Shown here: piece by piece, positions 36,324 to 54,243 of the stretch | Layout of the letters: each line of letters begins with the position of its first letter | Position numbering within the stretch: position 1 is the stretch's first letter | Assembly: GCF_000002985.6 (NCBI RefSeq) | Contig: NC_003280.10 | Location: 14,256,501-14,320,500 of the forward strand | DNA: 64,000 bases | Direction: 5' to 3' | DNA from: Caenorhabditis elegans | Taxonomy: Eukaryota > Nematoda > Chromadorea > Rhabditida > Rhabditidae | Notes under the pieces: model-generated | Database searches by the model: none | What the model saw: only the letters and a program-made list of their open reading frames with translations | What the model was told of the DNA's origin: nothing | Translations under genes and position numbers: made by a program

Positions 36324-39130
36324 ATGGCCGAATGGTGTGCCGATCATTTGCGCAATTGCGAAGGCTGGAAGTCGGCTGGTCTGGAACTATCAACTACGAG
36401 TGATGAGAATGCGAAATGGTTGGATGCCTGCATTCGACAGCTTGTTTCCTGGTCGGATTGCACCAGTTTAGGCGGATTTGATGCTTCGGCAGAGAAACTT
36501 GCATCTTCGGATCCTGAAGCAAGTTAGTAATCTTGTTCAACTTAGGAAGTCACTAACTGATGTTGCATTTTAAGTTATGGCCCGAACTTTTCTCATTGGT
36601 ATTACCGGGATCTTTGGTGTAGCCAATGCTCGAAATGTGGAGTTTATTGAGAAAATGAATCAACTAGAAATTGACGCTGAAAAGTATGGAAACGCCCGAG
36701 AAAAGCGACATGCCAAATCAGCGATTTTGTGGGGAAGAGGGTAAGGGCTCCTTTAGGAGATATTTTTTTGAAATTGTCATATTTTCTCAGAAAGCATCAC
36801 GAAGCAGCCATCGAGTGGGACAAGCTACTAGATGATTACCCAACAGATTTGATCGCTGTCAATTTTTCACACAGAGCTCATTTCAACAATGGGAATCTGA
36901 TTGGGAAGAAGAACGCAATTGAGAAGGTTATCGACAAATGGAATGCAGATTTACCATGCTATAGGTCAAAATGTTTGGTTAGGTGTCGATTACTAACCCC
37001 AATATTTTCAGCTACCTCCACGGTATGTATGCATTTGGTCTGGAAGAATGCGGAATTTACGGTGATGCTGAAAAACAAGCAGATCGGGCCCTACAACTGA
37101 ATCGATTTGATTGCTGGGCCTCACACGCAAAAGCTCACGTCCTCGAGATGAACGGGCGGCACAAAGAGGGAAAAGAGTTTATGTACAAGACGGAAGATGA
37201 TTGGAGGGTACGTTTAATCTATCTAGCAAAATATATAGTTACCAGCCGTTGACCGCACCTCCGGCGCGGCCCCCGACTTCTGGGGAAGAAAACAAATTTT
37301 TCTGAAACTACCGTAGTCTTATTACAGTACTCCTACAGTACCACTATTGTATCACCTCAGTACCTCGACTATAACCCTACACTAACCCCCAACTCACTAT
37401 CCCTCCAGAAGCGAAAACTTTCACAGACTACAAAAACTAATGCACGTGCTCGCTGGCTGTCTCAAAATTCACGTTTTCTCGCGGACGAGAAAACTTGAGA
37501 AATGTGAGAAAATGGCCTAGAAAATCCTGGAAGAGGAGAATTCCTCGTCCACAGCCAAAATAGCGTGTGAAAGAAGAGACGCAGACGGCAAAACGGTTAT
37601 TCTTGGCGTTTTTCACGTCCAGAGAAAAAAGTAGTATCTGCGTCTCTCACGCCCAATGGATAGCGAGAGTTGGTGCCAACGTGAATTCTCAATGAGGCGC
37701 GTTTGCTTCAAAATTATGCAAAAGGACAGCCAGCGACCACGTGCTAATGTACATAGACTACAAACTATGGACACACGGAATAAGCGGTTTAGATATAGTA
37801 AATGATGTTTCCAGCAAGGCTGGATGCTAGCCGCCCACAACTACTGGCACACAGCTCTCTTTCACATCGAATCCGCGGAATATGAGCCAGCGCTAGAGAT
37901 TTTCGATCGAGAAATTGTGAAACGATCTAGCAAGGTTGATGGTAGCTCACTGCTATGGAGATTGGAACTAGAAGGTGTCAATGTTGGAAGGGATCGGTGG
38001 GAGAAGATAGAAAACCTCTCCAAATTCATCGGTGATCACTCTTCTGTTAGTAATGATGTACAAATAGGAATTGCAACTTATATGCAAGAGGATTTGGAGA
38101 CAGAGAAGAAATTGAGAGATTCGTTGGTGAAGTATTCAGAGTGAGTTGGAGCCTAGGCAGAGCAAAATGTTTTTACTTCTAAAATTAGCGCTCATTAGCT
38201 GAGTCTACCAATGTGCCTTCAGTGATTGATCCGAAGGGTGTAGAGAACCTGGGCTCCCATTACGGTTTGATCTACAAAAAAATGCGGCAAATGTGACGTC
38301 AGCACGTTTTTCACCATGCGAAATCGAAGTCTGCGTCTAAATTCCCGCGACTCTCGTAGATCAAATCGAAACGGGACACTCTGACATCACGTGGGGCTAA
38401 GAGAATCATCCAAGTTTTCTGGTTTTTGACACTAGGTGATACAGATCTAACAGATATTCAAATAGGTGCAGCTGATAAAAAACACATTTTTTGCCGCACA
38501 CATCAAAAATTTGACAATGCAATTTTGACCAAAACTATTGATTTTGTTTCCAAAAAATGTAGTAAAATTACACAAAATTGATTTATTTTGATGCTTAGGC
38601 AGACACACTACACGGAACTTATTCAGAAACCAGATGTGTGCTAAGAATTCCTTAGATTTGGTGCTCCAAAAAATTTCAAAAAATATCAAATTTTTCGGAG
38701 TTTGTTAAGCACTGCAAATTTTGAGATTTCCCGCATACCCCTGGCCTATAGTGTCGTACATTTTTGAAAACTTGTCAATTTATTTTTCCATATCTGAAAA
38801 TCGTTCAGGCTTCTCACCGAGGACAACGCGCAAATTAGCAAGACCACCGGTGTGCCGCTCTACGACGGAATGCTCAACTTTGCTCGTCGCGACTACGACA
38901 CAGCAGCCGATACTATGTACCCAATCAGGGACAAAATCGTCCAGATCGGTGGATCTAATTCTCAGCGGGATCTTTTTGTGCAGACACTGATACAGTCTTG
39001 CATTTTGAGCAAGGATCCCAAAAATTGGGGATTGACACCTGAGCTGCTGGCGGAGAGGAATGCCTTGCATCATAACTCGTTGGTGGGACTGCGACTTGCT
39101 GATAAGTTTAGAAATTTGCATCCGTTGTAA
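36324..39130 (+). CDS. TTC38-family protein, proximal copy (6 exons, 460 aa)
   Basis: The exons are 36324-36522, 36575-36740, 36791-36964, 37012-37207, 37815-38140 and 38809-39130 (1,383 nt with stop). The product matches tetratricopeptide-repeat protein 38: family blocks include DYPTDLIAV, HGMYAFGLEE, NRFDCWASHAKAHVLEM, HNYWHTALFHIE and the C-terminal GVPLYDGMLNFAR and VGLRLADKFR. TTC38 proteins are alpha-helical repeat proteins, probably cytosolic, of unclear biochemical role. A CTTCAG acceptor three bases before the ATG suits SL1 trans-splicing. Poly(A) signals are at 39193-39202. It is 65% or more similar to the next gene. Confidence 0.9.
37442..37744. repeat. Inverted-repeat element in TTC38 intron 4
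   Basis: The ends GCACGTGCTCGCTGGCTGTC and GACAGCCAGCGACCACGTGC pair with one mismatch. An inner inverted pair carries AGACGCAGA/TCTGCGTCT. The paralogous intron of the second gene (41957-42004) is only 48 bp and lacks it, so the insertion came after the gene duplication. Confidence 0.8.
38247..38394. repeat. CACGTGGTG-type miniature element, TTC38 intron 5
   Basis: It contains GGTTTGATCTACAAAAAAAT, TGACGTCAGCACG and an inverted CTCGTAGATCAAATCGAAAC arm, ending in GACATCACGTGG. Confidence 0.75.
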
Positions 39131-40807: not shown

Positions 40808-43035
40808 ATGGCCGAATGGTGTGCCGATCATTTGCGCAATTGCGAAGGCTGGAAGTCGGCTGGTCTGGAACTATCAACTACGAGTGATGAGAATGCGAAA
40901 TGGTTGGATGCCTGCATTCGACAGCTTGTGTCCTGGTCGGATTGCACCAGTTTAGGCGGATTTCATACATCGATCGAGAAGCTTGTGGCTTCGGATCCTG
41001 AAGCAAGTTAGTTTGTTTTTTGTTTAGCACTTGGAGTCTCTGAATTTTCAGTTATGGCCCGAACTTTCCTAGTGGGCCTCTCCGGGCTCGGCACAGAAGC
41101 CGCTGCTCGAAATGTCGAATTTGCCAAGAAAATGGATCAACTAGAAATTGACGCTGAAAAGTATGGAAACGCCAGAGAAAAGCGACATGCCAAAGCAGCG
41201 ATTTTGTGGGGAAGAGGGTAAGGGCTCCTTTAGGAGATATTTTTTTGAAACTTTCCTGTTTTTCAGAAAGCATCATGAAGCTGCCATCGAGTGGGACAAG
41301 CTTCTAGATGATTACCCAACAGATTTAATTGCAGTGAAGTTCTCACACGATGCTCATTTCTTCAATGGAAATCAGATAGGGAAGAAGAACGCAATTGAGA
41401 AGGTTATCCACAAGTGGAATGCAGATTTACCATGCTATAGGTGAGATTTAATTGTTTCTATTTTCGAAATATTTTAGTCTCTAAAATTGGTTTCATTTTA
41501 AAATAGCGCCATCTACAACAAGAAAACTGTCCTAGTAAGCGCTGCGTTCAGATTTTCCGAATTTCAAAAAACCAATGCGTCTAGAGTGGGATTTGAATCC
41601 ATCTAAATAAAAGAGGTTATGGTTCATAAGGTCTAGGAGTTCAAGCTAGGTTCAGGCCTATTCACAACTAAATATGAAAATTAAAACAAAAATAACTAAA
41701 TAGGTTTTATATCTACATGCTTCGAAACCGGCTTCTATCCCCAACATTTTTTTTCTTTAGCTATCTCCATGGCATGTATGCTTTTGGCCTTGAAGAATGT
41801 GGTATCTACGATGATGCTGAAACACAAGCAGATCGGGCCCTACAACTGAACCGATTTGATTGCTGGGCTTCCCACGCAAAGGCTCACGTCCTCGAGATGA
41901 ACGGGCGGCACAAAGAGGGAAAAGAGTTTATGTACAAAACGGAGGATGATTGGAGGGTACTTTTCAATCTATTCAATTAATTGTAAATATACTTCCCCTT
42001 TCAGCAAGGTTGGATGCTAGCCTCTCACAACTACTGGCACACGGCACTATTTCACATTGAGTACGCAGAATATGAGTCAGCGCTGGGGATTTTTGATCGA
42101 GAAATTGCGAATCGATTCAACAAAACCAACTCCTTGCTAGACATGGTTGATGCCAGCTCACTGCTGTGGAGGTTAGAACTGGAAGGTGTCAATGTTGGAA
42201 GGGATCGGTGGAGGAAGATAGAGCATCTGTCGAAGTTCATCGACAATCACTCAATTGTGTTCAATGATGTGCACCTAGGGCTTGCAATTTATAGACAGGA
42301 GGATTTGGAGACGGAGAAGAAGTTGAGAAATTCATTGGAGAAGTATTCATCGTGAGTAACACTATCCAGTTCGCCTTATCCGAAAAGAGAGAAGCTACAA
42401 ATCTATGAAAGATTTTGACATGTTGTATGTACTTGGTAGGCATGTGGTGTCGAGCTGTCCCATTTCGATTTGATTTACGTAGATCTACGAGAATTGCGGG
42501 AATTTAGACGCAGACGTCTTTGCTGATTTCGCATGATAAAGAACCTGCTGACGTCACATTTTTTAGGGAAAATTTCCCGCATTTTTTGTAGATCAAACCG
42601 TGATTGGCGAAAATTTAAAAACGTTGTATCGAAAGGTGTTAGGATATGTGGAATTAGATGTGATAATCAGCTCCTAGGTCAAACTTACCACATATCAAAC
42701 TATCATTTTTCAGGCTGCTATCCGAGGACAATGCCCAAATCAGCAAGACCATCGGGATGCCCCTCTACGACGGGATGCTTGACTTTGCCCGCTGCGACTA
42801 CGACACAGCTGCCGAGACTATGTACCCAATTCGCGATAAAGTTGTCCAAATCGGAGGATCTCATGCCCAGCGGGACCTTTTCGTTCAGACACTGATACAG
42901 TCTTGCATTCTGAGCAAGGATCCCAAGAATTGGGCTTTGACGCCTGAGCTGCTGGTGGAGAGGGAGACCCTGAAGCATGACTCGCTGTTGGGCCAGAGGC
43001 TTGCTGATAAGTTTAGAGCTTTACATCCGCTGTGA
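40808..43035 (+). CDS. TTC38-family protein, distal copy (6 exons, 467 aa)
   Basis: The exons are 40808-41006, 41052-41217, 41267-41440, 41761-41956, 42005-42351 and 42714-43035. Five have exactly the same length as in the upstream paralogue; exon 5 is 21 bp longer, adding seven residues (NSLLDMV region). The same TTC38 blocks are present, including HGMYAFGLEE and GMPLYDGMLDFAR. Exon 1 is nearly identical to that of the first copy for about 155 bp and then diverges sharply, which suggests gene conversion. A CTTCAG acceptor precedes the ATG. AATAAA is at 43099-43104, and the 3' end converges on ctl-2, whose stop is 122 bp away. Confidence 0.9.
42443..42606. repeat. CACGTGGTG-type miniature element, opposite orientation
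   Basis: It lies in intron 5 of the distal TTC38 gene, in nearly the same position as the 38247-38394 copy in its paralogue, but inverted. It carries GATTTACGTAGATCTACGAG, TGACGTCACATTTTT and GTAGATCAAACCGTGAT. Confidence 0.75.
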
Positions 43036-43156: not shown

Positions 43157-45520
43157 TTAGATATGAGAGCGAGCCTGTTTCTGGATGAGTGCCTTGACAC
43201 GAGCTCCAAAATCTGGATGAACCTTTGAAAAGTGATCGATCATTCCCTTAATAATGAAATCATGACATTCCCCGAGCGGCCCTGCAAAGTTCTGGCACAT
43301 TCTCTCCCGAGCCCCGGTATCCAACACCTTCTCCCAGAATTGACGGGGTTGATCATAGTTGTTGTCATCTCCACTTTCATAACGATCAACATCTCCAGTG
43401 GCTGGGAATGTGGTATCCTTGACATCCGGACGAGTCTTTCCATAGTTGAAGCTGTTCGGGAAGAAGTTTGGAGCATGTTGCTGATTGTCATAAGCCATTG
43501 CACCATCACGCTGGGTGTTATGAGCACGGGAGCGGTACGGGCAGTTGACTGGAAGCTGGATGTAGTTTGGTCCAAGGCGGTGGAAATGAGTGTCGGTGTA
43601 CGAGAAGATACGTCCTTGGAGCATCTTGTCTGGCGAGAACTCGATTCCTGGGACGATGTGGGCCGGGCAGAAGGCGGATTGTTCAACCTGGAAATAAAGT
43701 ACTGTAGGATTACTGTAGTTTTGGAAAAACGTTTTTGTGTTTCCCAAAACTAGCTATTCACGTTGAACTCACGTGGTGTCAGAGTGTCTCATTTCGGCTT
43801 GATCTACTTTGATCTACAAAAAATGCGGGAGAAGAGACGCAAGGTTTTCAACTGATTTCGCATGGTTAAGAACTTGCTGAAGTCTCATTTTTTGTGCAAA
43901 AAAAATTCCCGCATTTTTTGTTGATAAAAAAAAAACAAACCATAATGGGACAGTCTGGCACCACGTGAGAGCTATCAATTCCGTCTTATGGGCCCTAGTT
44001 TCTCGTTAGAGCGCAATTGCATGCCTTACCACACTTCACACGGTAGCACAGAAACTAGATGGCTTGGTTCATGATAATCAGTCTAAAAACCTGTATTGGC
44101 TGCTATCTCGAAAACTAACCCAAATTTGGATTTTGCGATGCATATGAAAAATGGCCGCAAGAAAATTTACTCGTTCGGTAGAGCACGTTTGCACTCACCT
44201 AGCTTCTGTACCACCCTGACTCGAATAGTAATAGTTGTGGTGAATGAGAAGAACCTGCTCTCTTTCTGTGGTAACCCCAAAAAACTTTGGCTCTGTACAG
44301 TACCAAAACACAATCCTACGAGACTACCGTACCGCAAGCTCTCCGGTATAGAAACAGTCCGAGTAGAAAAGGGACCGACTAGGCCACCTTAGCGCGCAAC
44401 TAGGCGGTCAAGCCCAGCCCATTACCTCAGCGAAGTAGTTCCTTGGATTTCTGTTCAGCACCATCTTGCCGACCTCGATCAGTGGGTAATCACCGTGTGG
44501 CCAAACTTTAGTGACATCAAATGGATTGAACTCCCATTTCTCAGCTTGTTCGAATGTCATCACTTGAATGAACATCTTCCATACTGGAAAGTCTCCCTTC
44601 TCAATAGCATTGAACAGGTCACGGATGGAATAGTCTGGGTCCGAAGAGGCAAGTTGACCGGCCTTCTCCACGGTGAGATTCTTCACTCCTTGAGTTGGCT
44701 GAAGTTGGAAATTATAGACCGAAAAATTTAAATAACATTAAGGACCCACCTTGAAATGGAATTTCACATAGATAGCCTTTCCGTCCTTGTTAACCATCTT
44801 GAATGTATGGGATCCGTATCCATTCATATGACGGTACCCATCTGGGAGTCCTCGATCGGAAAACAGGAACATCACTTGATGCAAAGCCTCTGGTCTATGA
44901 AGCCAGAAGTCAAAGATCATGTTGGGATCCTTCAGGTGAGTCTGTGGATTACGCTTCTGGGTATGGATAAAGTTCGGGAAGTGGATAGGGTCACGGATGA
45001 AGAAGATCGGAGTGTTATTTCCAACCAGATCCCAGTTTCCCTCCTCGGTGTAGAACTTGATCGCAAATCCACGTGGATCACGAGCGGTGTCGGCGGATCC
45101 GCTCTCACCACCGACTGTAGAGAATCTAATTAGCAGTGGGGTCTGCTTCCCGACCTTGTTGAAGATATCGGCCTTACAGTACTTGGAGATGTCATGGGTG
45201 ACCTCGAAGTATCCATGGGCTCCGGCTCCCTTGGCATGAACGACACGCTCGGGGATACGTTCACGATCGAAATGAGCCATCTCATCCATATAAACTACAT
45301 CTTGCATGAGCATTGGGCCACGCCGCCCGGCGGTGAGCACGGCGGTCTTCGAGTAGATCGGAGCTCCATTTGAAGTTGTGATCACTTGGGGTTTCTGAAA
45401 CAAGTTACTGTAAATAGTAGTTGTTGTTGTAGAAAATGCGTCTGTGCCTTTAAACTCTAAACTCACTGGATACGTCTCCTTGTAGGTTTTCAGTTGATTA
45501 TCCGATGGATCGTTTGGCAT
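43157..45520 (-). CDS. ctl-2: Peroxisomal catalase (4 exons, 500 aa)
   Basis: The exons are 45467-45520, 44750-45394, 44426-44698 and 43157-43687. The enzyme dismutates hydrogen peroxide to water and oxygen with a haem cofactor. Key residues are the distal His71 (in ERVVHAKG), Asn144 (in [10 protein letters not shown]) and the proximal haem ligand Tyr354 (in [10 protein letters not shown]). The C-terminus ends in Ser-His-Ile, a PTS1-like peroxisomal signal, which with the length of 500 identifies ctl-2. An AATTTCAG acceptor lies seven bases before the ATG, fitting trans-splicing. All donors are GT. Intron 3 holds a CACGTG-type miniature element (43770-43967) and a less AT-rich stretch of unknown nature at 44030-44400. 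Confidence 0.95.
43770..43967. repeat. CACGTGGTG-type miniature element, ctl-2 intron 3
   Basis: The ends CACGTGGTGTCAGAGTGTCT and CAGTCTGGCACCACGTG are well paired. Inside are TTTGATCTACAAAAAATGCG and CCCGCATTTTTTG arms. Confidence 0.85.
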
Positions 45521-47120
45521 TTTGGTTCTGAAATTTTAGTTAGGAAATTTAGAATTAAATAAAACTCTGAACAAAAAAATGACCACGACGAGGTGTAATA
45601 CGGAATATGGGTTGGGAGAGACAAGAGAAACAGAGAAAAAAGAAAGAAGATTGTAGCGTTATCACTGATAAGGAACATGTTGTTGGACACCAGACTACGG
45701 CATAGTCTCGCTTATTTTGGACAGGCAAAAAAGTAGGGGGAAAGACAAAAATTAGGTAGGTATTGATTATGGGTCAGGGTATACGGGGAATGGATTGATC
45801 TACAAATCTACAGATCTACAAAAAATGCGGGAGAATAGACGCAGAGTTTTCAACTGATTTCGCATGGTTGAGAACGTGCTGACGTCACATTTTTCTGGAC
45901 GAAAAATTCCCGCATTTTTCATAGATCAAAGCGTAATGGGACAACCTGGCACTACGTGGAAAAGTGGTACCTGTACGCAATTTGTCTACCGTATACCTGA
46001 ACTTTTGGGCTTGTCGTTTTTATCAAAAACGAGTGGCCCAATATTTTTGTGATGTATATAAAAAATGTCCGAAAAAAATAAACTCTAAATTTTTTGGTCC
46101 AAAGCTTTTTTCTTATCTTGCGCCTAAACCTGGTTAAACTCAAATTATCAGTAGAGCGCATTTGCATGGATGTACCACTAGCCGGGCCGCGGGGTGTTGC
46201 TGTATGGTGCATATGTGCAAACACCATAACTTACGCGCAAATTTGACAAACTTACTGTCAAAAAGGCGCGCTATAAATAAGCAATATATTGACTATTTTG
46301 AATTTTAAAAACAAAAAATAATCCAAAGTTGTCCACGAGCAGTACACAGCGGCTTGTAGAAGTATTGCGCGTCAAATATGGTGCATCGAAAAATGATCAT
46401 ATTTTACGCTCAATTTTCACTTCTACCGAACTGATTATTGATGTTTTCCGGCGATTCTTATACTCCCAGTCGCGGTGCTCTGTACAAGAGATGATGACGT
46501 CACATGTTTATGATAAGCGATAAGGGAAACCCAAAAATAAAATAAAGTGTTGTGTCGGTCTCGCAGCGATGAAATTGTTGACCAAATTTTGCAATGTTTT
46601 CACCAAAAACTACGGTACCCGGTCTCGAAACGACAAATACTGTAACTTTAAACTTTCGTTGACGCGGATTTTTTATCGATTTTTTTTTTAATTTTGTGTT
46701 TTTATTGTTATATTTGAGTTGTTTTCATCGAAAAAATATAAAAAATCGATAAAAACTCCACAGCGACAAAAGTTTGCAACTACAGTACTCTTTAAAGGCG
46801 CACATATTTTCGCAATAGATAAAAAACTGTCGTTTCGAGACCCGATACCGTAATTTTGGCGCGAAAATTGCTTTTACAGTCTAACTTAAGTTTTCATCTT
46901 TAAAAATTGACTGAAACAAAAAATTTTCCAGATTTTCTTCAAACAGGAAAATGATGACGTCACGTGGCCAATTTTCTGCCTGATAAAACGCTATTTAATT
47001 TCCGGCTTTTTTGATTTATGTGCACATAAAATTTCTTATCATCAAAAACCAGAAGAAATACAAAAAAAAGAGTTTATAAATAACGAGATTCTATATACAA
47101 AAGTTTGAATATCAAACAAT
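45521..47120. other. ctl-2 upstream / ctl-1 downstream intergenic region
   Basis: These 1.6 kb contain the ctl-2 trans-splice acceptor, a truncated CACGTG-type element (about 45795-45958), and a GGTCTCGAAACGACA palindrome (46625-46850). No gene is visible. An identical copy (49754-51353) lies upstream of ctl-1. The ctl-2 promoter is probably here. Confidence 0.6.
46625..46850. repeat. GGTCTCGAAACGACA palindrome (duplicated at 50858-51083)
   Basis: The inverted arms carry GGTCTCGAAACGACA / TGTCGTTTCGAGACC and TTTTTATCGATTTTT / AAAAATCGATAAAAA. It is related to elements at 27.5 and 59 kb that contain CTTTAAAGGCGCACA. Confidence 0.75.
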
Positions 47121-49753
47121 TTAATGCTTCTTCTGGCAGAGCTGATGGCGAAGAGCATTTCCGAAATCCGGATGAACTTTCGTGAACTCTTTGACCATTC
47201 CATTTTGAATTTCCTCCAAACAGCCACCCAAATCACTAGCCAAATTCCCAACGAGCCGATCTCTCTCCTCCTCCTTGAGCACTTTCTCCCAGAACTGACG
47301 TGGCTGCTCGTAGTTGTGATCGTCTCCAGTCTCATAACGATCAACATCTCCAGTCGTCTGAAATGTCGACTCCTTCACATCATCACGAGTACGGTATCCG
47401 CGGAAACTGTTCGGGAAGTAATTCGGCGCATCTCCCTGGCTTTCATAAGCCATTGCACCATCGCGTTGAGTGGTATGAGCACGGGAGCGGTACGGGCAGT
47501 TGACTGGAAGCTGAATGTAGTTTGGTCCAAGGCGATGGTAATGCGTGTCCGTGTAGGAGAAGATACGCCCTTGGAGCATCTTGTCTGGCGAGAACTCGAT
47601 TCCTGGGACGATGTGGGCCGGGCAGAAGGCGGCTTGTTCGACCTGAAAACCAAAATAAAAAATATTTTTACTCCACCTTTAAAGCTAGACGTAAAATGCA
47701 ATTTTTATTGTTCCTATTAGGTCTCCAAATAAGTTCCGGGTCAAAAATCAGAACTTTTTTTGCCTTTTATAGATTTTTTTGAAACTTTGGGAATTTATGT
47801 TATCAACTATGACCTTTCATTTTGAAATGGTCACAAAATTTTTTGACCACCCGGAGCGCCCTAACTCGGAGCCATTTTTTTCAGGCATTTTTCAGATCTC
47901 GCTTCTTTTCAGGTTTCAATTGAGGTTTGTGTGCGGATTTTGCTTAGTTTAGTACACAATGTAAGAAAACAAAAAAAGTTTGGAAAAAATCCGTCCAAAA
48001 AAATTTTTTTTGTCGGTCGTCAAAAAATCTTCAAAAAAATTTTTTTTCGAAAATTCTCGATTTTTTATACAAGAATGATGTAACCATGTGCAAACTATTT
48101 TTACACATACAAAACATTTGAGTATGAAATTTGGATCTCGAGAAATACTCCAAGAACTCGAAAATTTTTCGAAAAAGCTGTGTTTTCTGTTATTGTTTTA
48201 GTGTGACGCAATAAATTGAAATGTTTTGTATGTGTAAAAATAGTTTGCACATGGTTACATCATTTTTGTATAAAAAATCGAGAATTTTCGAAAAAAAAAT
48301 TTTTTGAAGATTTTTTGACGACCGACAAAAAAAATTTTTTTGGACGGATTTTTTCCAAACTTTTTGTTTTCTTACATTGTGTACTAAACTAAGCAAAATC
48401 CGCACACAAACCTCAATTGAAACCTGAAAAGAAGCGAGATCTGAAAAATGCCTGAAAAAATTGGCTCCGAGTTAGGGCACTTCGGACGGCCAAAAAATTT
48501 TGTGACTATTGTCAAATGAAAGATCATAGTTGATAACGTAAATTCCTACAGTTTCATAAAAATCGATACACAGCGAACAAAGTTATGATTTTTGACCCGG
48601 AACTTATTTGGAGACCTAATATTAAAAAAAACTAATTCATCTTCACACCACTTGCCTCAGCGAAATAATTCTTCACATTCCTGTTCAGCACCATCTTGCC
48701 GACCTCGATCAGTGGGTAATCACCGTGTGGCCAAACTTTAGTGACATCAAATGGATTGAACTCCCATTTCTCAGCTTGTTCGAATGTCATCACTTGAATG
48801 AACATCTTCCATTCCGGGAAATTTCTTGACTCAATGGCATTGAACAGGTCGCGGATCGCATAGTCTGGATCCGAAGAGGCGAGCTTTCCAGCGTCAGTTG
48901 GATCGAGATTCTTGGAACCTTGAGCAGGCTGAAAAATAGAAAATGAAAATTTAATTCTAGTCCCCGTCTCTCTTAGGCTTACCTTGAAATGGAATTTACA
49001 ATAAATCGGATTTCCCTCCTTGTTGACCATCTTGAAAGTATGCGCTCCGTATCCATTCATAAAACGGAATCCATCAGGAATTCCACGATCCGAGTAGAGG
49101 AACATCACCTGATGAATGGATTCAGGGCGATTCATCCAGAAATCGAAGAGCGCATTCGGATCCCTCATGTGAGTCTGTGGATTGCGCTTCAGGGCATGAA
49201 TGAAATTCGGAAAGTGGATTGCGTCACGAATGAAGAAGATCGGAGTGTTATTTCCAACCAGATCCCAGTTACCCTCCTCGGTATAGAATTTGAGAGAGAA
49301 TCCACGTGGATCGCGGACAGTATCAGCGGATCCCGATTCTCCAGCGACCGTTGAAAAACGAACGAGAAGTGGTGTCTGTTTTCCGACCTTGTTGAACATA
49401 TCGGCCTTACAGTACTTGGTGATGTCATGGGTGACCTCGAAGTATCCATGGGCTCCGGCTCCCTTGGCATGAACGACACGCTCGGGGATACGTTCACGAT
49501 CGAAATGAGCCATCTCATCCATATAAACTACATCTTGCATGAGCATTGGGCCACGCCGCCCGGCGGTGAGCACGGCGGTCTTCGAGTAGATCGGAGCTCC
49601 ATTTGAAGTTGTGATCACTTGGGGTTTCTGAAACAAGTTACTGTAAATAGTAGTTGTTGTTGTAGAAAATGCGTCTGTGCCTTTAAACTCTAAACTCACT
49701 GGATACGTCTCCTTGTAGGTTTTCAGTTGATTATCCGATGGATCGTTTGGCAT
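47121..49753 (-). CDS. ctl-1: Catalase, chimeric middle gene (4 exons, 497 aa)
   Basis: The exons are 49700-49753, 48983-49627, 48656-48928 and 47121-47642. The 497-residue length and the lack of a peroxisomal signal (C-terminus QKKH) fit cytosolic ctl-1. Catalytic His71, Asn144 and haem ligand Tyr354 are all present. From the start to about residue 78 it is identical to ctl-2, and after about residue 87 it is identical to ctl-3; the switch lies in the 30-bp tract 49421-49450. Intron 3 begins with GC (GAG|GCAAGT), a GC-AG intron, and is almost entirely one 905-bp palindrome. The assignment to ctl-1 rather than ctl-3 rests on remembered protein lengths. Confidence 0.92.
47716..48620. repeat. 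905-bp palindrome in ctl-1 intron 3 (copy at 51949-52853)
   Basis: The ends ATTAGGTCTCCAAATAAGTT and its complement begin two long inverted arms meeting near 48168. The arms share, for example, CCTGAAAAGAAGCGAGATC and TTACATTGTGTACTAAAC. It occupies nine tenths of the intron and ends 34 bp from the GC donor. The pre-mRNA would fold into a hairpin of about 450 bp. Confidence 0.9.
48654..48655 (-). promoter_or_regulatory. GC splice donor of ctl-1 intron 3
   Basis: The exon ends GAG and the intron starts GCAAGT. Splicing here keeps the frame and matches the ctl-2 junction (GAG|GTAATG) at the same codon. The rest of the donor fits the U1 consensus closely, as known for functional GC-AG introns. 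No alternative GT nearby keeps the frame. The copy in ctl-3 is at 52887-52888. Confidence 0.85.
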
Positions 49754-52700
49754 TTTGGTTCTGAAATTTTAGTTAGGAAATTTAGAATTAAATAAAACTC
49801 TGAACAAAAAAATGACCACGACGAGGTGTAATACGGAATATGGGTTGGGAGAGACAAGAGAAACAGAGAAAAAAGAAAGAAGATTGTAGCGTTATCACTG
49901 ATAAGGAACATGTTGTTGGACACCAGACTACGGCATAGTCTCGCTTATTTTGGACAGGCAAAAAAGTAGGGGGAAAGACAAAAATTAGGTAGGTATTGAT
50001 TATGGGTCAGGGTATACGGGGAATGGATTGATCTACAAATCTACAGATCTACAAAAAATGCGGGAGAATAGACGCAGAGTTTTCAACTGATTTCGCATGG
50101 TTGAGAACGTGCTGACGTCACATTTTTCTGGACGAAAAATTCCCGCATTTTTCATAGATCAAAGCGTAATGGGACAACCTGGCACTACGTGGAAAAGTGG
50201 TACCTGTACGCAATTTGTCTACCGTATACCTGAACTTTTGGGCTTGTCGTTTTTATCAAAAACGAGTGGCCCAATATTTTTGTGATGTATATAAAAAATG
50301 TCCGAAAAAAATAAACTCTAAATTTTTTGGTCCAAAGCTTTTTTCTTATCTTGCGCCTAAACCTGGTTAAACTCAAATTATCAGTAGAGCGCATTTGCAT
50401 GGATGTACCACTAGCCGGGCCGCGGGGTGTTGCTGTATGGTGCATATGTGCAAACACCATAACTTACGCGCAAATTTGACAAACTTACTGTCAAAAAGGC
50501 GCGCTATAAATAAGCAATATATTGACTATTTTGAATTTTAAAAACAAAAAATAATCCAAAGTTGTCCACGAGCAGTACACAGCGGCTTGTAGAAGTATTG
50601 CGCGTCAAATATGGTGCATCGAAAAATGATCATATTTTACGCTCAATTTTCACTTCTACCGAACTGATTATTGATGTTTTCCGGCGATTCTTATACTCCC
50701 AGTCGCGGTGCTCTGTACAAGAGATGATGACGTCACATGTTTATGATAAGCGATAAGGGAAACCCAAAAATAAAATAAAGTGTTGTGTCGGTCTCGCAGC
50801 GATGAAATTGTTGACCAAATTTTGCAATGTTTTCACCAAAAACTACGGTACCCGGTCTCGAAACGACAAATACTGTAACTTTAAACTTTCGTTGACGCGG
50901 ATTTTTTATCGATTTTTTTTTTAATTTTGTGTTTTTATTGTTATATTTGAGTTGTTTTCATCGAAAAAATATAAAAAATCGATAAAAACTCCACAGCGAC
51001 AAAAGTTTGCAACTACAGTACTCTTTAAAGGCGCACATATTTTCGCAATAGATAAAAAACTGTCGTTTCGAGACCCGATACCGTAATTTTGGCGCGAAAA
51101 TTGCTTTTACAGTCTAACTTAAGTTTTCATCTTTAAAAATTGACTGAAACAAAAAATTTTCCAGATTTTCTTCAAACAGGAAAATGATGACGTCACGTGG
51201 CCAATTTTCTGCCTGATAAAACGCTATTTAATTTCCGGCTTTTTTGATTTATGTGCACATAAAATTTCTTATCATCAAAAACCAGAAGAAATACAAAAAA
51301 AAGAGTTTATAAATAACGAGATTCTATATACAAAAGTTTGAATATCAAACAATTTAATGCTTCTTCTGGCAGAGCTGATGGCGAAGAGCATTTCCGAAAT
51401 CCGGATGAACTTTCGTGAACTCTTTGACCATTCCATTTTGAATTTCCTCCAAACAGCCACCCAAATCACTAGCCAAATTCCCAACGAGCCGATCTCTCTC
51501 CTCCTCCTTGAGCACTTTCTCCCAGAACTGACGTGGCTGCTCGTAGTTGTGATCGTCTCCAGTCTCATAACGATCAACATCTCCAGTCGTCTGAAATGTC
51601 GACTCCTTCACATCATCACGAGTACGGTATCCGCGGAAACTGTTCGGGAAGTAATTCGGCGCATCTCCCTGGCTTTCATAAGCCATTGCACCATCGCGTT
51701 GAGTGGTATGAGCACGGGAGCGGTACGGGCAGTTGACTGGAAGCTGAATGTAGTTTGGTCCAAGGCGATGGTAATGCGTGTCCGTGTAGGAGAAGATACG
51801 CCCTTGGAGCATCTTGTCTGGCGAGAACTCGATTCCTGGGACGATGTGGGCCGGGCAGAAGGCGGCTTGTTCGACCTGAAAACCAAAATAAAAAATATTT
51901 TTACTCCACCTTTAAAGCTAGACGTAAAATGCAATTTTTATTGTTCCTATTAGGTCTCCAAATAAGTTCCGGGTCAAAAATCAGAACTTTTTTTGCCTTT
52001 TATAGATTTTTTTGAAACTTTGGGAATTTATGTTATCAACTATGACCTTTCATTTTGAAATGGTCACAAAATTTTTTGACCACCCGGAGCGCCCTAACTC
52101 GGAGCCATTTTTTTCAGGCATTTTTCAGATCTCGCTTCTTTTCAGGTTTCAATTGAGGTTTGTGTGCGGATTTTGCTTAGTTTAGTACACAATGTAAGAA
52201 AACAAAAAAAGTTTGGAAAAAATCCGTCCAAAAAAATTTTTTTTGTCGGTCGTCAAAAAATCTTCAAAAAAATTTTTTTTCGAAAATTCTCGATTTTTTA
52301 TACAAGAATGATGTAACCATGTGCAAACTATTTTTACACATACAAAACATTTGAGTATGAAATTTGGATCTCGAGAAATACTCCAAGAACTCGAAAATTT
52401 TTCGAAAAAGCTGTGTTTTCTGTTATTGTTTTAGTGTGACGCAATAAATTGAAATGTTTTGTATGTGTAAAAATAGTTTGCACATGGTTACATCATTTTT
52501 GTATAAAAAATCGAGAATTTTCGAAAAAAAAATTTTTTGAAGATTTTTTGACGACCGACAAAAAAAATTTTTTTGGACGGATTTTTTCCAAACTTTTTGT
52601 TTTCTTACATTGTGTACTAAACTAAGCAAAATCCGCACACAAACCTCAATTGAAACCTGAAAAGAAGCGAGATCTGAAAAATGCCTGAAAAAATTGGCTC

Positions 52701-53683
52701 CGAGTTAGGGCACTTCGGACGGCCAAAAAATTTTGTGACTATTGTCAAATGAAAGATCATAGTTGATAACGTAAATTCCTACAGTTTCATAAAAATCGAT
52801 ACACAGCGAACAAAGTTATGATTTTTGACCCGGAACTTATTTGGAGACCTAATATTAAAAAAAACTAATTCATCTTCACACCACTTGCCTCAGCGAAATA
52901 ATTCTTCACATTCCTGTTCAGCACCATCTTGCCGACCTCGATCAGTGGGTAATCACCGTGTGGCCAAACTTTAGTGACATCAAATGGATTGAACTCCCAT
53001 TTCTCAGCTTGTTCGAATGTCATCACTTGAATGAACATCTTCCATTCCGGGAAATTTCTTGACTCAATGGCATTGAACAGGTCGCGGATCGCATAGTCTG
53101 GATCCGAAGAGGCGAGCTTTCCAGCGTCAGTTGGATCGAGATTCTTGGAACCTTGAGCAGGCTGAAAAATAGAAAATGAAAATTTAATTCTAGTCCCCGT
53201 CTCTCTTAGGCTTACCTTGAAATGGAATTTACAATAAATCGGATTTCCCTCCTTGTTGACCATCTTGAAAGTATGCGCTCCGTATCCATTCATAAAACGG
53301 AATCCATCAGGAATTCCACGATCCGAGTAGAGGAACATCACCTGATGAATGGATTCAGGGCGATTCATCCAGAAATCGAAGAGCGCATTCGGATCCCTCA
53401 TGTGAGTCTGTGGATTGCGCTTCAGGGCATGAATGAAATTCGGAAAGTGGATTGCGTCACGAATGAAGAAGATCGGAGTGTTATTTCCAACCAGATCCCA
53501 GTTACCCTCCTCGGTATAGAATTTGAGAGAGAATCCACGTGGATCGCGGACAGTATCAGCGGATCCCGATTCTCCAGCGACCGTTGAAAAACGAACGAGA
53601 AGTGGTGTCTGTTTTCCGACCTTGTTGAACATATCGGCCTTACAGTACTTGGTGATGTCATGGGTGACCTCGAAGTATCCATG
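49421..53683. repeat. 4,233-bp tandem duplication, right unit plus 30-bp overlap
   Basis: This is the second copy of 45188-49450. The last 30 bp (53654-53683) are the third occurrence of the tract GATGTCATGGGTGACCTCGA and following bases, found once in each catalase gene. That is exactly what an unequal crossover in this tract leaves behind. Confidence 0.95.
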
Positions 53684-54243
53684 AGCACCACCACCTTTGG
53701 CATGGACGACACGCTCCGGGATGCGTTCACGATCGAAATGAGCCATCTCGTCCATATAAACGATGTCCTGCATTAGCATTGGACCACGTCGTCCGGCGGT
53801 GAGCACGGCGGTCTTCGAGTAGATCGGAGCTCCATTGGATGTGGTGAGCAGGTGGGGTTCCTGGAAAAATCAGTTTTTATATAAATTGCGAAGAAAATCG
53901 CTGAAATTGATTTTTCTCACCTGATTTCTATCTCTATAAGCTTTCAGCTGATCCTCAGCCATTGGTCCGGGTTTTGTGTCGTTGACCGCTAAAAATATAT
54001 AGTCACGTGGTGCCAGACTGTCCCATTACGGTTTGATCTACAAAAAATGCGGGAATTTTTGCCCAAAACAATTTGACGTCCGCACGTTCTTAACCATGCG
54101 AAAGCAGTTGAGAACTCTGCGGCTCAATTCCCGCATTTTTTGTAGATCTACGTAGATCAAACCGAAATGAGACAATCTGACATCACGTGTATTTTGTAAC
54201 AAAGAAACTCACTTAGATTGACCATGTGGGGAAGCATTGGCAT
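51354..54243 (-). CDS. ctl-3: Catalase, distal gene (5 exons, 512 aa)
   Basis: The exons are 54213-54243, 53921-53988, 53216-53860, 52889-53161 and 51354-51875. The 5' end differs from its neighbours: two short exons encode a 33-residue N-terminus starting [10 protein letters not shown], giving 512 residues. The catalytic residues shift to His86, Asn159 and Tyr369. Exons 3 and 4 of this gene and its last exon are identical to ctl-1 apart from the first ~180 bp of exon 3. It shares the GC-AG intron (52887-52888) and has no peroxisomal signal. A TTTTCAG acceptor at 54281-54287 (minus) suggests trans-splicing or an upstream UTR intron. Its upstream DNA is unrelated to that of the other two. Confidence 0.93.
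54004..54189. repeat. CACGTGGTG-type miniature element, ctl-3 intron 1
   Basis: The ends CACGTGGTGCCAGACTGTCC and GACATCACGTG are inverted copies. It nearly fills the 224-bp intron between the two short 5' exons. Confidence 0.85.

What the first reader, a model, noticed from the sequence alone, without database searches (positions are those of the whole stretch)
45188..53683. Middle catalase gene is a chimera made by unequal crossover
A 4,233-bp unit is directly repeated with no difference visible by eye. The repeat edges fall in exon 2 of the three catalase genes: identity begins at 45188 in ctl-2 and ends at 53683 in ctl-3, leaving a 30-bp tract (49421-49450) shared by all three. The simplest history is a two-gene array (ctl-2-like and ctl-3-like) that recombined out of register in this tract. 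The new gene has the upstream region, exon 1 and first ~60 codons of exon 2 of ctl-2, and everything downstream from ctl-3. The near-perfect identity, including introns and intergenic DNA, implies a very recent event or ongoing homogenisation.
Basis: partly seen in the sequence, partly recalled or inferred. Interest (0 to 1): 0.85.

Follow-up and report, generated by a model that had tools for sequence, protein, structure and literature searches.

The report
Recombinant middle catalase gene, ctl-1
The middle of three neighbouring worm catalase genes is a recent hybrid with the promoter and front end of one neighbour and the rest of the other, which explains where it works and why it is very hard to study apart from its neighbours.

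Summary
Confirmed. In the C. elegans ctl-3 / ctl-1 / ctl-2 array (minus strand), 45188-49420 and 49421-53653 are identical over 4,233 bp with no differences, and identity runs on 30 bp. The edges fall in homologous exons of all three genes. ctl-1 equals ctl-2 from 3.9 kb upstream of the ATG through codon 87, and equals ctl-3 from codon 78 onwards.
Trees built on either side of the tract conflict as a chimera predicts. Caenorhabditis sp. 36 carries both parental protein types. This supports a two-gene ancestor and one out-of-register exchange.
Likely consequence: a ctl-3-type catalase without the ctl-2 C-terminus came under ctl-2's intestinal promoter. The two 1,600-bp upstream regions are identical and carry GATA sites; ctl-3's has none. 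Published reporters agree.
Corollary: ctl-1 has no private DNA word shorter than 32 bp, so short probes, siRNAs and Cas9 guides cannot match it alone. CTL-1 has one private fully tryptic peptide, at the crossover.
The mosaic identity and identical promoters are in print. In ten paper searches I did not find the explicit crossover reading, but the key 2004 paper was not held. Age, wild-strain frequency and mode of exchange remain open.

The parts
43157..45520 (-). ctl-2, exons 45520-45467, 45394-44750, 44698-44426, 43687-43157; 500 aa ending in SHI
   Evidence: Splice-site gene model, open frame; PF00199 matches
47121..49753 (-). ctl-1, the chimeric middle gene, exons 49753-49700, 49627-48983, 48928-48656, 47642-47121; 497 aa ending in KKH
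   Evidence: Model (corrected); chimeric pattern
51354..54243 (-). ctl-3, exons 54243-54213, 53988-53921, 53860-53216, 53161-52889, 51875-51354; 512 aa ending in KKH
45188..49420 (-). Repeat unit A, 4,233 bp
   Evidence: 0 differences to unit B
49421..53653 (-). Repeat unit B, 4,233 bp
   Evidence: 0 differences to unit A
49421..49450 (-). Exchange tract in ctl-1 (30 bp, codons 78-87); the recombination junction
   Evidence: Identical in all three genes
45188..45217 (-). Copy of the tract in ctl-2 exon 2
53654..53683 (-). Copy of the tract in ctl-3 exon 3 (homologous to exon 2 of the others)
49420..49451 (-). The only private 32-mer in 45188-53683; no private word of 31 or fewer bases exists there
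   Evidence: k-mer scan against the window, both strands
49754..51353 (-). ctl-1 upstream region, 1,600 bp, identical copy of the ctl-2 upstream region
   Evidence: Identical; 7 TGATAA and 3 TGACGTCA sites
45521..47120 (-). ctl-2 upstream region, 1,600 bp
44451..44582 (-). 132-bp tract of ctl-2 exon 3 identical to ctl-3 (and so to ctl-1): probable older gene-conversion tract
   Evidence: Longest identical run found; codon permutations
47693..48643 (.). Palindromic dispersed repeat in the last intron of ctl-1 (second copy in the last intron of ctl-3 at 51926-52876); not found in the ctl-2 intron
   Evidence: Inverted repeats; genome-wide family, other listed copies at most 97% alike

Best explanation
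An ancestral two-gene array, 5'-ctl-3 - ctl-2-3' on the minus strand, underwent one homology-guided out-of-register exchange in a 30-bp tract of a shared exon. The duplication product is the present array: ctl-3, then ctl-1 (ctl-2 upstream region, exon 1, intron 1 and first 77 codons, then the shared 10 codons, then ctl-3 body, 3' UTR and downstream DNA), then ctl-2. Shown: the exact mosaic, zero divergence, conflicting trees, and both protein types in a relative. Inferred: that one event did it, that it was recent, and that the functional effect was promoter capture, placing a catalase that lacks the ctl-2 C-terminal peroxisomal signal under the intestinal promoter of ctl-2.
For: 0 of 4,233 differences, with edges at homologous coding positions. 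Alignment columns 1-60 of CTL-1 have Ks = Ka = 0 to ctl-2, and columns 121 onwards have Ks = Ka = 0 to ctl-3, against Ks 0.785 for ctl-2 versus ctl-3 overall. N-part tree: CTL-1 identical to CTL-2, while CTL-3 groups with brenneri (97/91) and then sp. 36 (96/87) ctl-3-like proteins. Body tree: CTL-1 identical to CTL-3, while CTL-2 groups with sp. 36 (95/92). sp. 36 carries both types, with matching N-termini (MPNDPSD versus MPMLP) and C-termini (SHI versus KKHK). Upstream regions of ctl-1 and ctl-2 are identical, with 7 TGATAA sites (shuffle mean about 2); 0 in 1,940 bp before ctl-3 (shuffle mean 2.6). In PMC4404050 (passages) the ctl-1 promoter, stated there to be identical to that of ctl-2, drove expression mainly in intestine and the ctl-3 promoter in nervous system and pharynx. 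PMC9635881 (legend) draws the same identical intervals.
Against: The 30-bp tract is shorter than the length quoted for homologous recombination (about 50 bp in E. coli, up to 300 bp in mammals; PMC3449122 passage), and longer identical tracts, up to 132 bp, were available. Zero difference alone cannot tell youth from homogenisation. No read depth or wild-isolate data could be examined. Relatives do not fit perfectly: the one listed C. angaria protein has a ctl-2-like start and a KH end, sits on the ctl-3 side of the body tree (99/97), yet is closer by identity to CTL-2 in both parts (87% versus 72%, 81% versus 76%). The sp. 36 ctl-3-like protein is only slightly closer to CTL-3 than to CTL-2 in the body (75.1% versus 72.0%) and not in the N-part (77.4% over 93 columns versus 80.8% over 78). 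A scan for DAF-16 and SKN-1 motifs did not reproduce published statements, and PMC8291716 calls all three genes peroxisomal catalases induced together (passage).
Confidence: 0.86

Rival explanations
1. The duplication was made by replication template switching or microhomology-mediated break-induced replication at the 30-bp tract rather than by meiotic unequal crossover.
For: The tract is only 30 bp, 30 of 351 bp (9%) of the identical tracts of 30 bp or more that I tallied between ctl-2 and ctl-3 in two whole exons and the first 300 bp of the last.
Against: The tract lies in a 645-bp exon that is 83% identical (533 of 645) and at exactly homologous codons, as homologous pairing predicts. The product is the same, so sequence alone cannot decide.
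Confidence: 0.25
2. A three-gene array is old, and the 4.2-kb units are kept identical by continuing gene conversion.
For: ctl-2 and ctl-3 share a 132-bp identical tract with too few synonymous changes (longest run reached in 6 of 20,000 permutations), so conversion has probably occurred in this array. C. angaria has a protein with a ctl-2-like start that the body tree puts on the ctl-3 side, so a mixed form in another species is not excluded.
Against: It would have to homogenise every base of 4,233 bp and stop at homologous points, leaving no patch. By identity the C. angaria protein is nearer CTL-2 in both parts, so it is no clear ctl-1 counterpart, and I saw no other candidate among the best 120 hits of each (capped lists, of which I fetched 11 proteins; members inside clusters were not seen).
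Confidence: 0.08
3. The second unit is an assembly or clone artefact of the reference.
For: Zero divergence is what a false duplication shows, and read depth could not be checked.
Against: A C. elegans protein record with 5 differences from the window's CTL-1 is chimeric in the same way (P0001). Papers use separate deletion alleles (ctl-1 ok1242, ctl-2 ok1137, ctl-3 ok2042; passages). PMC4404050 cloned a 1,600-bp stretch between ctl-3 and ctl-1, exactly the length here.
Confidence: 0.03

Closest known systems
Chimeric gene duplicates of C. elegans (Katju and colleagues: PMC3637608, PMC2728529, PMC3449122; passages only)
   Same: A young duplicate whose parts come from two ancestral donors; 40 of 130 young pairs in PMC3637608 were classed chimeric. 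The span of 4.2 kb is within the reported 128-6,335 bp.
   Different: Here both donors are paralogous coding genes joined in frame inside an exon, so the product is a full-length enzyme. 'ctl' and 'catalase' have 0 occurrences in the main text of those three papers; supplements were not seen.
Published description of the C. elegans catalase array (Petriv and Rachubinski 2004, not held and not read; PMC9635881, PMC7213980, PMC4404050, passages)
   Same: Tandem ctl-3, ctl-1, ctl-2; [quoted passage not shown] identical ctl-1 and ctl-2 promoters; 'newly duplicated' ctl-1 and ctl-3.
   Different: The passages I saw do not state a crossover point, a two-gene ancestor, or the limits on gene-specific probes.
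Unequal-crossover hybrid genes such as haemoglobin Lepore/anti-Lepore and the red/green opsins (recalled, no call)
   Same: Hybrid formed between tandem paralogs paired out of register; the array gains or loses one unit.
   Different: Here the gain product is in the reference strain and, as inferred, changed tissue of expression rather than causing disease.

Membership tests
Unequal-crossover chimera between tandem paralogs | Direct tandem repeat whose edges lie at homologous points of both parents | tested here: met
Unequal-crossover chimera between tandem paralogs | Recombinant gene equals one parent upstream and the other downstream, intergenic DNA included | tested here: met
Unequal-crossover chimera between tandem paralogs | Two-gene ancestral state in relatives | tested here: inconclusive
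   Two catalases each in sp. 36 and C. auriculariae on contigs of equal length; gene order in those genomes not seen; C. angaria fits poorly; the closest sister species not in the listed hits
Unequal-crossover chimera between tandem paralogs | Reciprocal deletion product or presence/absence variation in the population | not testable with these tools
   I found no wild-isolate sequence to examine; the aCGH study PMC2822765 used only probes without non-unique 20-mers (passage), and 45188-53683 has no unique 20-mer within the window
[quoted passage not shown]
   Definition seen; two genic donors
Monofunctional haem catalase | Pfam Catalase PF00199 over threshold | tested here: met
   7 matches over the three genes, bits 118 to 491 against a cut-off of 25
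Ongoing gene conversion/concerted evolution | Homogenised patches with boundaries unrelated to duplication edges | tested here: inconclusive
   One 132-bp exon-3 tract between ctl-2 and ctl-3; no patch can be seen between the two 4,233-bp units because they do not differ at all

The most novel reading that the evidence does not exclude
ctl-1 is a new gene born within C. elegans, young enough to be present in some wild lineages and absent from others. By promoter capture it gave the intestine its own cytosolic catalase, so strains with two and three genes should differ in resistance to hydrogen peroxide from bacteria.
Probability: 0.4. Interest if true: 0.7.

Novelty: new member of a known kind. 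Interest (0 to 1): 0.42.

Why it matters
[quoted passage not shown] If it was born by promoter capture, its role is a clear case of one exchange making a gene with a new pairing of tissue and compartment, testable in natural populations. [quoted passage not shown]

Tried and rejected
Searched for wild-isolate or copy-number evidence: nothing on this locus. One search listed one paper (PMC7694339, which chose C. elegans alone for its genus, passage). One search listed one paper, PMC8291716; its passages give gene induction only. One search shows why array CGH is blind here.

Searched for an explicit statement of a chimeric or unequal-crossover origin: one search listed 1 paper (PMC3853187; its one 'gene duplication' match is in the reference list), searches listed 0, and one search listed 3 (PMC8291716, passages, nothing relevant; the other two, on a crab transcriptome and on soil bacteria, I saw as listings only). 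Petriv and Rachubinski 2004 is not held, so I cannot exclude that it says so.

Scanned for the recalled DAF-16 core TGTTTAC and the SKN-1 motif: no DAF-16 core in the three upstream regions and one SKN-1 match, before ctl-3. This does not reproduce the statement in PMC7213980 that all three promoters have such sites; my motif set is simple and its names are recalled.

The search of the genome with the whole unit was swamped by the dispersed intronic repeat and says nothing about further copies.

Considered that the 30-bp tract was a chance edge of conversion patches: rejected as primary, because identity is unbroken over 4,263 bp.

Dating with recalled mutation rates (1.3e-9 to 2.7e-9 per site and generation) gives an upper 95% bound of about 1.3e5 to 2.7e5 generations for the whole unit, or 2.0e5 to 4.2e5 if only the 2,739 noncoding bases are used. 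This holds only without conversion.
Full report
Observation. The window is 14256501-14320500 of contig C2 of a 100,286,401-base genome in 7 contigs. That it is C. elegans chromosome II is my naming, since the tool gives none; the proteins (P0001) and the published array agree. Comparing 45188-49420 with 49421-53653 gives 0 differences in 4,233 positions. Identity runs on for exactly 30 bases to the right and not one base to the left. The tract is the same in all three genes.

Gene models. Using splice sites on the minus strand I modelled ctl-3 (51354-54243, 512 aa), ctl-1 (47121-49753, 497 aa) and ctl-2 (43157-45520, 500 aa), each with one terminal stop. The tract lies at codons 78-87 of ctl-1 and ctl-2, in their exon 2 and in the homologous exon 3 of ctl-3. 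The last intron of ctl-1 and ctl-3 starts with GC, while that of ctl-2 starts with GT. The Pfam catalase model finds 7 exon matches in the genome, all 7 here. The DNA search with the unit was swamped by a dispersed repeat and does not bear on further copies.

Mosaic. Between ctl-1 and ctl-2, alignment columns 1-60 have Ks = Ka = 0. Between ctl-1 and ctl-3, columns 121 onward have Ks = Ka = 0. The 61-120 block holds the switch. ctl-2 against ctl-3 has Ks 0.785 and Ka 0.151 overall. ctl-1 and ctl-2 share 3,930 bp upstream of their ATG (follows), including the whole 1,600-bp intergenic region.

History. I used the three window proteins, the record P0001 and 13 proteins chosen by me from two searches, each of which listed 120 hits of about 8,000 scored candidates. 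In the tree of the N-part, CTL-1 is identical to CTL-2, and CTL-3 joins C. brenneri (97/91) and then the sp. 36 ctl-3-like protein (96/87); only those 2 of 12 inner branches are starred. In the body tree CTL-1 is identical to CTL-3, inside a group with C. brenneri (81/68) and sp. 36 (94/90), and CTL-2 joins sp. 36 (95/92). Species sp. 36 has both types (513 aa starting MPMLP and ending KKHK; 500 aa starting MPNDPSD and ending SHI) on contigs of the same length. C. auriculariae also has two catalases on contigs of one length, but both branch outside the ctl-2/ctl-3 split in the body tree. C. angaria has one listed protein with a ctl-2-like start and a KH end; the body tree puts it on the ctl-3 side (99/97), but by identity it is nearer CTL-2 in both parts. 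The sp. 36 ctl-3-like protein is only slightly nearer CTL-3 in the body (75.1% versus 72.0%), so its placement rests on the tree and on its two ends. So the ctl-2/ctl-3 split most likely predates the C. elegans - sp. 36 split and a two-gene ancestor is likely; gene order in relatives was not seen.

Mechanism. Pairing ctl-2 on one chromatid with ctl-3 on the other and exchanging in the tract gives exactly ctl-3, then a ctl-2/ctl-3 hybrid, then ctl-2, with the intergenic DNA doubled. The tract is short: longer identical runs exist in exon 3 (132 bp), exon 4 (64 and 40 bp) and exon 2 (44 and 41 bp), in ctl-2 numbering. Published lengths for homologous recombination are about 50 bp in E. coli and up to 300 bp in mammals (PMC3449122, passage). 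Template switching is therefore a live rival with the same product. The longest run of identical codons between ctl-2 and ctl-3 is reached in 0 of 20,000 permutations for all 406 codons and in 6 of 20,000 for the 325 same-amino-acid degenerate codons, which suggests an older conversion between the parents; as all three genes share the 132-bp run, it most simply predates the duplication.

Age. With zero differences, recalled mutation rates give an upper 95% bound of 1.3e5 to 2.7e5 generations for the whole unit and 2.0e5 to 4.2e5 for its noncoding part, if no conversion has acted. [quoted passage not shown] other listed genome copies are at most 97% alike, so it was most simply inserted before the duplication.

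Artefact? Record P0001, named 'catalase 2 [Caenorhabditis elegans]', has the chimeric form and 5 differences from the window's CTL-1, at residues 385-399. It looks independently sequenced, though its source was not seen. Separate deletion strains for the three genes are used in print (passages). A 1,600-bp ctl-3 to ctl-1 interval was cloned (passage), the same length as here.

Function. CTL-2 ends in SHI, CTL-1 and CTL-3 in KKH. That SHI is a peroxisomal signal is recalled; CTL-2 as peroxisomal and CTL-1 and CTL-3 as cytosolic is stated in PMC7213980 and PMC9635881 (passages), whereas PMC8291716 calls all three peroxisomal and reports them induced together (passage). The shared ctl-1/ctl-2 upstream region has 7 TGATAA sites (mononucleotide-shuffle mean about 2.1) and 3 TGACGTCA palindromes (shuffle mean 0.02, counted on both strands); one of the three lies in the dispersed repeat at 50046-50144. 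The 1,940 bp before ctl-3 have none of either, where 2.6 TGATAA are expected, so that absence alone is weak. TGATAA as an intestinal GATA site is recalled. In PMC4404050, the ctl-1 promoter, stated to be identical to that of ctl-2, drove fusion proteins mainly in intestine, and the ctl-3 promoter in nervous system and pharynx (passages). [quoted passage not shown] Hence promoter capture: inferred, well supported, not tested here.

Practical corollary. Ten word lengths from 15 to 33 were tested: none up to 31 is unique within the window in 45188-53683, and the first is one 32-mer at 49420-49451. On modelled mRNAs ctl-1 has 0 of 1,539 private 31-mers and 19 of 1,520 private 50-mers; UTR ends were assumed. 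Of 33 fully tryptic peptides of 6-40 residues one is private to CTL-1: [16 protein letters not shown], 1701.81 Da, against 1687.80 for both the CTL-2 and CTL-3 counterparts; with up to one or two missed cleavages 3 of 88 and 6 of 142 are private, all containing it. Peptides were compared among the three proteins only.

Prior knowledge. PMC9635881 already draws the intervals of 100% identity; PMC7213980 calls ctl-1 and ctl-3 newly duplicated; PMC4404050 notes identical promoters. I did not find the crossover reading in ten searches of an open-licence library. The 2004 source paper was not held, so priority is undecided.

Noticed in passing
48643-48656 (ctl-1) and 52876-52889 (ctl-3): The donor of the last intron is GC (GAG|GCAAGT) in ctl-1 and ctl-3 but GT in ctl-2; retention of the intron would end the protein within a few codons.
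   Followed up: partly
47693-48643 and 51926-52876: Long palindromic dispersed repeat in the large intron; 80 strand-wise matches from 40 scored candidates of 210 in the genome, the window's two copies included, other listed copies at most 97% alike.
   Followed up: partly
44451-44582: 132-bp tract in exon 3 of ctl-2 identical in all three genes, probably an older conversion between ctl-2 and ctl-3 ancestors.
   Followed up: yes
43811-43909, 45813-45911, 50046-50144 and 54042-54189: A short repeat carrying GATCTACAAAAAATGCGGGA sits in the last intron of ctl-2, in both promoter copies and, inverted, in intron 1 of ctl-3.
   Followed up: no
36729-39130 and 41148-43008: A second pair of similar plus-strand coding stretches beside ctl-2 (83% over 300 bp; similar ORFs). 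Two ORFs of the region gave no Pfam match; a resemblance to TTC38 is recalled only.
   Followed up: no
Protein P0006 (C. angaria, 498 aa): Ctl-2-like start and KH end; on the ctl-3 side of the body tree but nearer CTL-2 by identity. It may keep an ancestral mix of features or have recombined on its own.
   Followed up: partly
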